A stretch of DNA of 32,065 nucleotides from contig DAIDHF010000034.1 of NCBI GenBank assembly GCA_027452005.1, positions 1 through 32,065 of the forward strand, in the 5' to 3' direction. Source of the stretch: Acidimicrobiales bacterium. Its GTDB lineage: Bacteria > Actinomycetota > Acidimicrobiia > Acidimicrobiales > JAKAVM01. Below the pieces are notes generated by a model, which was not told where the DNA came from, ran no database searches, and was given only the letters and a program-made list of their open reading frames with translations. Position numbers and translations under genes: made by a program. This document shows positions 29,441 through 32,065 of the stretch, piece by piece; within the stretch, counting starts at the first letter, position 1; each line of letters starts with the position of its first letter.

Positions 29441-31570
29441 ATGGTTGACCTAGGATCTGAGTTCGATCAACTTGAGGCTAACGTTGATCTGCACGTCAAA
29501 GATCGTCACACGTCAATCGGACTTACTTCAGACGACCTGGTCAACATGTACTACAAGATGGTCCAGGCACGAAGGCTTGATGAAAAGTTGTGGTCTCTCA
29601 ATCGAATGGGCAAGGCCTCCTTTGCAATCTCCGGTCAAGGCCATGAGGCATGTCAGGTTGCGAGTGCCTGGGCACTAGACAAGGGCCACGACTACGTTTT
29701 GCCCTACTACCGAGATATCGGGGTGGTCCTGGTATGTGGTCTGTCTCCCTATGAGATACTTCTGGGGGCTTTAGGAAGAGGGGATGACCCGTGTTCTGGG
29801 GGTCGTCAGATGCCAAATCACTGGGGGAGTGCGCGGCTTAGAATAATAACCGGGTCCTCGCCAATTGCAACCCATCTCCCGCACGCGGCAGGAATTGGAC
29901 TTGGGGTTCACATGGCCGGAGGTGACGAGGTGGTGGCCTGTTATTTTGGAGATGGGGCGACGTCCAAGGGAGACTTTCATGAGGCTCTCAATTTTGCCTC
30001 AATCTACAAGCTCCCTGTGGTGTTTATCTGTGAAAATAACGGGTACGCAATTTCAGTTCCAATCTCAAAAGAGAGTGCGGTGACAAACATTGCCCAAAAG
30101 GCGTCCAGTTATGATCTTCCAGGGGTAATAGTAGACGGGAACGACGTCTTAGACGTGTACGAGGCCACCAAGGCAGCAGTTGACCGGGCTCGGTCCGGTG
30201 AAGGCCCTACCCTACTTGAGTGCAAGACCTACCGATTCTTGGCTCACACATCAGACGACGACGACAAGGTTTATCGGGCCCGAGACGAAGTAGAGGCTTG
30301 GAAGAAGCATGACCCAATAACAAATCTGAAGCGATATTTACTCGAACAGCGCCTGTTGCCCGAAGCTCTCGAACAAGATCTTATTGAAGAGATCCGCAAG
30401 CAGATTGAAGAGAGTACCCTAGTAGCCGAGGCCCAGCCTGGCCAGGCCCCTGGGGATGTTCAAAAGTGGGTTTTCGCGCCGCAGGAAAAGTTACAGTCGC
30501 CCTACCTGGTTGCAAGCAGCCTGGAGGTCTCACAAAGAGGACCTAGAGAAACTACAGAGCGGACCAATCAGGATCCCGAAGCAGTCCAAGGCACCACGGT
30601 CAATATGATCGAGGCTGTTCGTTACGTACTCGATGAGACCCTCGCCAAAGACCCGGTAGCGCTAATTATGGGTGAGGACGTCGGTACCAAGGGAGGCGTA
30701 TTTGGGGCAACCCGAGGGCTTCTAGACAAGTACGGGTCTGCTCGGGTTCTAGATACTCCACTAGCCGAGTCGTCGATTGTCGGGATAGGGATCGGGCTCG
30801 GCTTTGTGGGCTTTAGACCAATCGTCGAGATTCAGTTTGCTGACTTTATCCACTCGGCCTTTGACCAGATAGTCAGTGAGGCCGCCAGGATCTGCTATAG
30901 GTCCAACGGAGACTTTGTGATGCCTCTCGTGATAAGGGCCCCCTGGGGTGGGGGAGTTCACGGAGCCCTGTATCACTCTCAGTGCATTGAGGCCTTCTAC
31001 GCCCACGTGCCCGGCATGAAAGTTGTCGCCCCGTCAAGTGTTGAGACGACCATCGGGCTGTTTCGCTCGGCGATGGCCGACCCGAATCCGGTTCTGTTCC
31101 TAGAGAATAAGAAGTGTTATCGCAATATCTCAGGGGTTATTCCGCCTGATGATTACACATACCCAATCGGTCGGGCCCAGATCGTCCGACCGGGTTCTGA
31201 CATCTCGGTCATAACATATGGATACCACCGCCATCTGGCACTAGAAGCCGCTGACCGCCTGTCTGAAACGGTGTCGGTAGAGGTAGTCGACTTGGTCTCG
31301 ATCAGCCCCTTGGACAAGGGGACAATCTTAGATTCTGTGGCCAAATGTGGGAGGGCTTTGGTGGTCCATGAGGACAACAGATCCTTTGGGGTTGGCGCCG
31401 AAGTGGCAGCAATCATTGGCGAGGAGGCTTTTTGGAATCTGGAGACCCCGGTCCGCAGACTGGCCATGGTAGACGTGCCAGCGATGCCTTATGCCCCAGA
31501 TCTAGAGCAAGCCGTAACGGTCGGGGTTGACGAGATTACCTCCGAGATCCAGGCCACAATCAACTCCTAA
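29441..31570 (+). CDS. 2-oxoacid dehydrogenase E1, alpha-beta fusion (branched-chain type likely)
   Basis: 709 residues joining both E1 chains in one polypeptide. The alpha half (about 1-345) has the TPP motif GDG at 170-172 through NN at 199-200 and the loop AHTSDDDDKVYR, which matches the branched-chain E1 loop rather than the pyruvate one. A variable linker (about 350-385) leads to the beta half (about 386-709) with MGEDVGTKGGVF, RAPWGGGVHG and HEDNRSFG. It decarboxylates a 2-oxoacid and transfers the acyl group to E2. No E2 or E3 gene lies in the window. ATG 29441 follows a short AT-rich gap; no clear ribosome binding site is seen. Confidence 0.94.
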   Translation: MVDLGSEFDQLEANVDLHVKDRHTSIGLTSDDLVNMYYKMVQARRLDEKLWSLNRMGKASFAISGQGHEACQVASAWALDKGHDYVLPYYRDIGVVLVCGLSPYEILLGALGRGDDPCSGGRQMPNHWGSARLRIITGSSPIATHLPHAAGIGLGVHMAGGDEVVACYFGDGATSKGDFHEALNFASIYKLPVVFICENNGYAISVPISKESAVTNIAQKASSYDLPGVIVDGNDVLDVYEATKAAVDRARSGEGPTLLECKTYRFLAHTSDDDDKVYRARDEVEAWKKHDPITNLKRYLLEQRLLPEALEQDLIEEIRKQIEESTLVAEAQPGQAPGDVQKWVFAPQEKLQSPYLVASSLEVSQRGPRETTERTNQDPEAVQGTTVNMIEAVRYVLDETLAKDPVALIMGEDVGTKGGVFGATRGLLDKYGSARVLDTPLAESSIVGIGIGLGFVGFRPIVEIQFADFIHSAFDQIVSEAARICYRSNGDFVMPLVIRAPWGGGVHGALYHSQCIEAFYAHVPGMKVVAPSSVETTIGLFRSAMADPNPVLFLENKKCYRNISGVIPPDDYTYPIGRAQIVRPGSDISVITYGYHRHLALEAADRLSETVSVEVVDLVSISPLDKGTILDSVAKCGRALVVHEDNRSFGVGAEVAAIIGEEAFWNLETPVRRLAMVDVPAMPYAPDLEQAVTVGVDEITSEIQATINS

Positions 31571-31833: not shown

Positions 31834-31924
31834 CCTCTTCGTTAGTGGCAATTACTTTAAAGCATTTCTCACAATAGATCTAAGTTAAAGAGCTTTCGCA
31901 GATAGCTGGATCACTGGTAGCCAT

Positions 31925-32065
31925 CAAGTTACCCCGAGGGGACTGGCGGCTTCAGCCGTCAGGGGAATCGGGGTTCGGGGCGACGCCCCGGGGCGTCACA
32001 CCCGAGGTGTACAGTGGATGGCAACGGGATTGGACGGGTCCTTCAAGCGCCTGTAGGGGAATGGC
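31925..32065 (+). ncRNA. Hairpin-dense structured RNA candidate, HEARO/omega-RNA-like, cut by the window end
   Basis: Consecutive stems pack this stretch with almost no free sequence. CCCCGA (31932-31937) pairs with TCGGGG (31968-31973) and encloses an 8-bp hairpin (31943-31950 with 31955-31962, loop TTCA). Next come CGGGGC/GCCCCG (31976-31990, loop GAC), ACACC/GGTGT (31998-32010, loop CGA) and a closing TACAG/CTGTA (32010-32014 with 32051-32055). The base composition jumps sharply from the AT-rich flank. No ORF is supported in it. Position and layout fit the RNA that precedes IscB-type HNH nucleases in IS200/605-like elements; the nuclease would start just beyond the window. The strand is inferred from this comparison. 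A TnpB right end read on the minus strand is the alternative. Confidence 0.45.

What the first reader, a model, noticed from the sequence alone, without database searches (positions are those of the whole stretch)
31925..32065. Structured-RNA block at the right edge that may be an omega-RNA (HEARO) of an IscB-type element
At least four stems occur in about 140 bases: a nested stem (31932-31973), and hairpins at 31976-31990, 31998-32010 and 32010-32055 (closing helix). The block is GC-rich, abuts AT-rich DNA and carries no supported gene. Established: HEARO RNAs sit directly upstream of HNH (IscB) nuclease genes and their 5' part is a guide copied from the host flank. Inference: here the guide would derive from bases just left of about 31925 and the nuclease would start just past 32065. 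If right, this is an RNA-guided nuclease locus next to a tRNA gene in an acidimicrobial genome.
Basis: partly seen in the sequence, partly recalled or inferred. Interest (0 to 1): 0.8.

Follow-up and report, generated by a model that had tools for sequence, protein, structure and literature searches.

The report
Small gene-less IS605 transposon with guide-RNA scaffold

Summary
The structured block is real and its left boundary (31925) is exact. It is not HEARO/IscB. The window is the end of contig C34, and the block is the first 141 bp of a dispersed 207-bp element (about ten near-identical copies plus older and truncated ones). Its ends match those of autonomous IS200/IS605 elements in the same genome, which encode a Y1 TnpA and a guided TnpB. 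39 of 41 insertions follow CCAT, and one reconstructed empty site fits insertion after CCAT without duplication. It is therefore a non-autonomous IS200/IS605 element (PATE). Its core matches the 3' end of tnpB, directly for a sister family (25-nt match, 0/2000 shuffles) and only through that family, narrowly, for this copy. It can form the stem 1, 3'-end pseudoknot, stem 2 and right-end hairpin expected of a TnpB omega RNA. The guide would be the flank right of the element, beyond 32065; the nuclease would act in trans. Whether the RNA is made and used is untested; within the sister family the core is barely better conserved than the linker. New member of a known kind.

The parts
31921..31924 (+). 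CCAT target site, which would be the TAM of the partner TnpB
   Evidence: 39 of 41 distinct left ends in five genomes are preceded by CCAT (exceptions ACAT, CCTT) and nothing further upstream is conserved; slipin empty site fits CTTCCAT|TTTTAG
31925..32065 (+). 5' 141 bp of a 207-bp non-autonomous IS200/IS605 element (PATE, here called MITE-1); cut by the contig end
   Evidence: 90-99% identical copies elsewhere in the genome; one 96% copy in another actinobacterial MAG
31931..31974 (+). left-end subterminal hairpin (CCCCGAGGGGACTGGCGGCTTCAGCCGTCAGGGGAATCGGGG), the presumed TnpA binding site
   Evidence: fold; the first 70 bp are 81-86% identical to the left ends of the autonomous tnpA-tnpB copies on C9 and C36
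31975..32007 (+). variable linker with GC-rich hairpin
   Evidence: most variable stretch among MITE-1 copies
32026..32041 (+). putative TnpB omega-RNA stem 1 (GGG/UCC) with loop GAC (32033-32035) that can pair with the 3'-terminal GUC of the element
   Evidence: alignment and pair counts; same layout in autonomous tnpB 3' ends
32042..32065 (+). putative omega-RNA stem 2, cut in its 3' arm; the right-end hairpin, the terminal GTCAC and the guide flank lie beyond the contig end
   Evidence: complete copies in L010, L004, L079; pair counts

Best explanation
The block is the truncated start of a 207-bp non-autonomous IS200/IS605 element. TnpA supplied by full-length relatives recognises its left and right hairpins and moves it as a single-stranded circle to sites 3' of CCAT. 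Its core is a remnant of the 3' end of tnpB and can fold like a TnpB omega RNA. If transcribed into the right flank, it would yield an RNA whose guide is that flank; a TnpB made elsewhere in the cell could load it and cut donor sites that lost the element (CCAT plus flank), helping it to persist. Shown: dispersal, shared ends, target preference, homology of the core class to tnpB 3' ends, compatible RNA architecture. Inferred: use of this TnpA, transcription, TnpB loading, cleavage. The confidence given is for the element being a non-autonomous IS200/IS605 element with a tnpB-derived core; for an active guide RNA it is about 0.3.
For: Repeat in many copies at unrelated sites. Autonomous 1.73-kb copies with the same ends encode Y1_Tnp (3e-33) and guided_TnpB NF040570 (1.3e-84); same-genus tnpB-only elements have these ends too. 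CCAT at 39/41 sites. Empty site: C9 left flank plus C36 right flank rebuild a slipin gene that is 3 nt longer than the G001 gene if CCATCAA is kept, and in register if only CCAT is kept. Sister-family core C62 matches both tnpB 3' ends over 21-25 nt (0/2000 shuffles each); the MITE-1 core beats all 1000 shuffles with the sister-family profile, narrowly (6.2 vs 5.5 bits). Structure: 87.9% of cells paired versus 17-55% when slid, covariation reached by 1/500 shuffles; same stems and pseudoknot in autonomous ends, 94.3% paired. ISDra2 precedent: reRNA is tnpB 3' end plus RE plus 16 nt of flank (PMC8612924), with a stem 1 and a pseudoknot to the 3' end (PMC10097598).
Against: A direct match of the MITE-1 core to the tnpB ends is not significant on its own. 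Within the sister family the core (81% mean identity) is barely better conserved than the linker (78%), so there is no sign of selection on it since those copies spread. RNAalifold alone finds little consensus structure, and the structure counted was chosen by me from these sequences. Pseudoknot pair 49-158 is broken in 6 of 20 sequences. No autonomous element carrying exactly this core was found. Four 48-bp copies without the core have moved too, so the core is not needed for transposition. No expression data.
Confidence: 0.85

Rival explanations
1. Non-autonomous IS200/IS605 element whose core is only a dead deletion remnant of tnpB; no RNA function, the structure matters only for TnpA recognition and as GC-rich folding.
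For: Nearly uniform divergence along sister-family copies; 48-bp core-less copies are mobile; folding energy not exceptional; weak RNAalifold consensus.
Against: The core persists in gene-less copies of other families of the order (G033, G035); stems and pseudoknot mostly kept.
Confidence: 0.5
2. HEARO/IscB omega RNA with the guide from the left flank and IscB to the right.
For: GC-rich multi-stem block at an insertion boundary.
Against: No HEARO match over the cut-off; no RRXRR domain (control silent); complete copies have no nuclease of their own to the right; end-sharing elements encode TnpB.
Confidence: 0.02
3. REP/RAYT-like repeat: structured repeats spread by a domesticated, immobile Y1 transposase, with no link to TnpB.
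For: Hairpin repeats plus a Y1 enzyme; TnpA hits the REP-associated model below its cut-off (27.6 vs 80 bits).
Against: TnpA is an IS200 equivalog (115 vs cut-off 55) and sits with tnpB between the same ends in two dispersed copies.
Confidence: 0.03

Closest known systems
PATEs (palindrome-associated transposable elements) of Haloquadratum walsbyi, PMC3119063
   Same: Transposase-free, subterminal palindromes related to IS605-type transposons, some made by deletion of the core, many copies
   Different: Different domain of life; here a tnpB 3'-end core with omega-RNA layout is kept; target CCAT defined
ISDra2 reRNA/omega RNA of TnpB (PMC8612924, PMC10097598)
   Same: tnpB 3' end plus right end, stem 1 with pseudoknot to the 3' end, guide from right flank, TAM equals insertion target
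   Different: No tnpB in cis; TAM would be CCAT, not TTGAT; activity not shown
HEARO RNA of IscB (Rfam RF02033)
   Same: Transposon-borne structured guide RNA
   Different: Not matched; guide on the other side; other nuclease family

Membership tests
IS200/IS605 non-autonomous element (PATE) | Ends shared with a Y1-transposase element | tested here: met
   C9 and C36 copies share left and right ends and encode PF01797/NF033573
IS200/IS605 non-autonomous element (PATE) | Subterminal palindromes, no transposase gene inside | tested here: met
   Folds and full copy sequences
IS200/IS605 non-autonomous element (PATE) | Insertion 3' of a fixed short target without duplication | tested here: met
   CCAT at 39/41 sites; one reconstructed empty site with no duplication, exact cut position ambiguous by a base or so
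TnpB omega RNA (reRNA) | Scaffold from tnpB 3' end plus right end | tested here: met
   Met for the sister family: core matches tnpB ends, 0/2000 shuffles; this copy's core is linked to it only narrowly
TnpB omega RNA (reRNA) | Stem-1 loop to 3'-end pseudoknot | tested here: inconclusive
   Pairable in 90% of cells, conserved but with little covariation
TnpB omega RNA (reRNA) | Expressed, bound by TnpB, guides cleavage next to the TAM | not testable with these tools
   No RNA or biochemical data
HEARO / IscB omega RNA | Match to Rfam HEARO model | tested here: not met
HEARO / IscB omega RNA | IscB (RuvC-HNH) gene downstream | tested here: not met
   No such gene downstream of complete copies; RRXRR search of the genome empty, but its control was silent

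The most novel reading that the evidence does not exclude
A genome-wide set of about 20 gene-less elements each expresses a TnpB scaffold with a different flank-derived guide, so that a few TnpB genes are programmed in trans with a distributed guide repertoire that protects transposase-free elements from loss.
Probability: 0.25. Interest if true: 0.65.

Novelty: new member of a known kind. Interest (0 to 1): 0.38.

Why it matters
It corrects a HEARO/IscB call to a TnpB-type non-autonomous element, gives a probable TAM (CCAT) and a compact scaffold for an actinobacterial TnpB family, and provides a natural test of whether gene-less transposons exploit guided nucleases in trans as well as transposases. 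It also explains many contig breaks in this assembly.

Tried and rejected
Rfam scans at both thresholds: only the tRNA and chance matches. HEARO and RRXRR in the whole genome: nothing convincing. A 30-nt core match in G051 (L054) proved to lie inside an ordinary nucleotide-sugar gene. Pattern scans found one further copy in another MAG and none in viral contigs. A search of 395 genomes of the class for an autonomous parent with the full core found only gene-less copies and ordinary tnpB ends. Synteny with three relatives did not reveal which contig continues the window, so this copy's guide is unknown. RNAalifold on all cores gave little.

Full report
Observation. The sequence at 31925-32065 folds much as described, although its energy is not exceptional for its composition (z -1.64). 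Its significance comes from repetition: in the window's own genome (G000, 195 contigs; the window is all of contig C34) the block has 41 matches including itself, eight of them 96-99% identical over nearly all its length. Copies start at window 31921 or very near it, in unrelated flanks. The window ends inside a copy because the assembly breaks in the repeat, as do many other contigs.

The whole element. Complete copies on C4, C28, C3, C8 and C2 are about 211 bp when counted from CCAT, i.e. 207 bp from CAA to the terminal GTCAC. One further copy, 96% identical, lies in another actinobacterial MAG (L079). No gene is carried.

The autonomous relatives. C9 and C36 carry 1.73-kb elements with the same kind of left and right end that encode a 134-aa Y1 transposase and a 393-aa TnpB. 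Same-genus genome G001 has tnpB-only elements with these ends, and left ends are shared with other genera. The element is thus a non-autonomous member of the IS200/IS605 group, a PATE in the terms of PMC3119063.

Target site. In 39 of 41 distinct left ends from five genomes CCAT precedes the element (ACAT and CCTT in the others), with no conservation further upstream (the count leaves out the chance matches of the pattern printed there). The left flank of the C9 element and the right flank of the C36 element together make one intact slipin gene. Compared with the slipin gene of G001 (LPFLDRM) the joined gene is three bases too long if CCATCAA is kept and in register if only CCAT is kept: CTTCCAT|TTTTAGATCGG. 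So CAA belongs to the element and CCAT is the target, with an ambiguity of a base or so. The swapped flanks mean that the two IS copies recombined or that the assembly was joined wrongly across them.

The core. A sister family of gene-less elements (MITE-2; C24, C44, C62, C3, C43, C2, C26, C31) aligns with MITE-1 along its length. The core of copy C62 contains GGGCTGGACTGGCCCTTC, found at the 3' end of tnpB in the autonomous elements. The matches exceed all 2000 shuffles for C62 against both tnpBs and for C44 against G001, but not for C44 against C9. MITE-1's own core does not match tnpB significantly by itself and is linked through MITE-2 only narrowly outside the shared ends (6.2 bits against a shuffle maximum of 5.5). 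Gene-less copies with this core also occur in G033 and G035, of other families of the order.

RNA architecture. I wrote down a structure modelled on the ISDra2 omega RNA (PMC10097598): stem 1, a pseudoknot between its loop (GAC) and the terminal GUC, stem 2 and the right-end hairpin. On 20 gene-less cores 87.9% of cells pair, against 17-55% for slid versions, and the covariation score is reached by 1 of 500 shuffles. On the autonomous tnpB ends the same layout pairs in 94.3% of cells. The structure was chosen with these sequences in view, so the slid control flatters it; covariation rests on few pairs.

Mechanism. From ISDra2 it is established that the reRNA consists of tnpB 3' end, right end and about 16 nt of the flank, and that the TAM equals the insertion target (PMC8612924). 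By analogy the guide of this copy is to the right of the element, beyond 32065, and the TAM is CCAT. TnpA and, if the RNA is used, TnpB must come in trans. Mobility in the recent past is indicated by near-identical copies at different sites; that TnpA of C9/C36 is the one used is inferred from shared ends. Expression and TnpB use are not shown. Against them: within MITE-2 the core is barely better conserved than the linker (81% against 78%), and four identical 48-bp copies (C13, C4, C2, C29) that lack the core have moved too.

Verdict. HEARO/IscB is not supported. The finding is a new member of a known kind: a non-autonomous IS200/IS605 element that retains a probable TnpB guide-RNA scaffold. 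That non-autonomous elements with omega RNAs and stand-alone omega RNAs have been reported elsewhere is my recollection; the searches of the held library did not return a paper on this combination for actinobacteria.

Noticed in passing
G000 C13:60058, C4:55235, C2:6042, C29:1056 (L021, L022, L016, L037): Four identical 52-bp mini-copies (48 bp without CCAT): the left-end arm fused to the right-end tail through the shared CTGGCGGCTTCAGCC hairpin, at four unrelated CCAT sites; a very small mobile unit.
   Followed up: partly
G000 C9:34500-38500 and C36:19500-23600 (L030, L031): Flanks of two 97% identical IS605 copies are swapped: one slipin (SPFH) gene is split between them, by recombination or misassembly.
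   Followed up: partly
G000 C8:2454 (L013): This MITE copy contains an inverted left-end tip (CCCCTCGGGGTGTTTTGATGG) in its linker, hinting at a palindromic ancestor or a recombination event.
   Followed up: no
G000 C3:82298-82900 and C8:2765 (L042, L049): MITE copies sit inside or next to remnants of other tnpA/tnpB genes.
   Followed up: no
window 29441-31570: Single 709-aa ORF that reads like a fusion of pyruvate/2-oxoacid dehydrogenase E1 alpha and beta; homologous DNA lies beside a tRNA-Phe match in relatives.
   Followed up: no
G000 C64, L029:1027-1066: A lone right-end palindrome GTGACGTCC...GGACGTCAC without the rest of the element.
   Followed up: no
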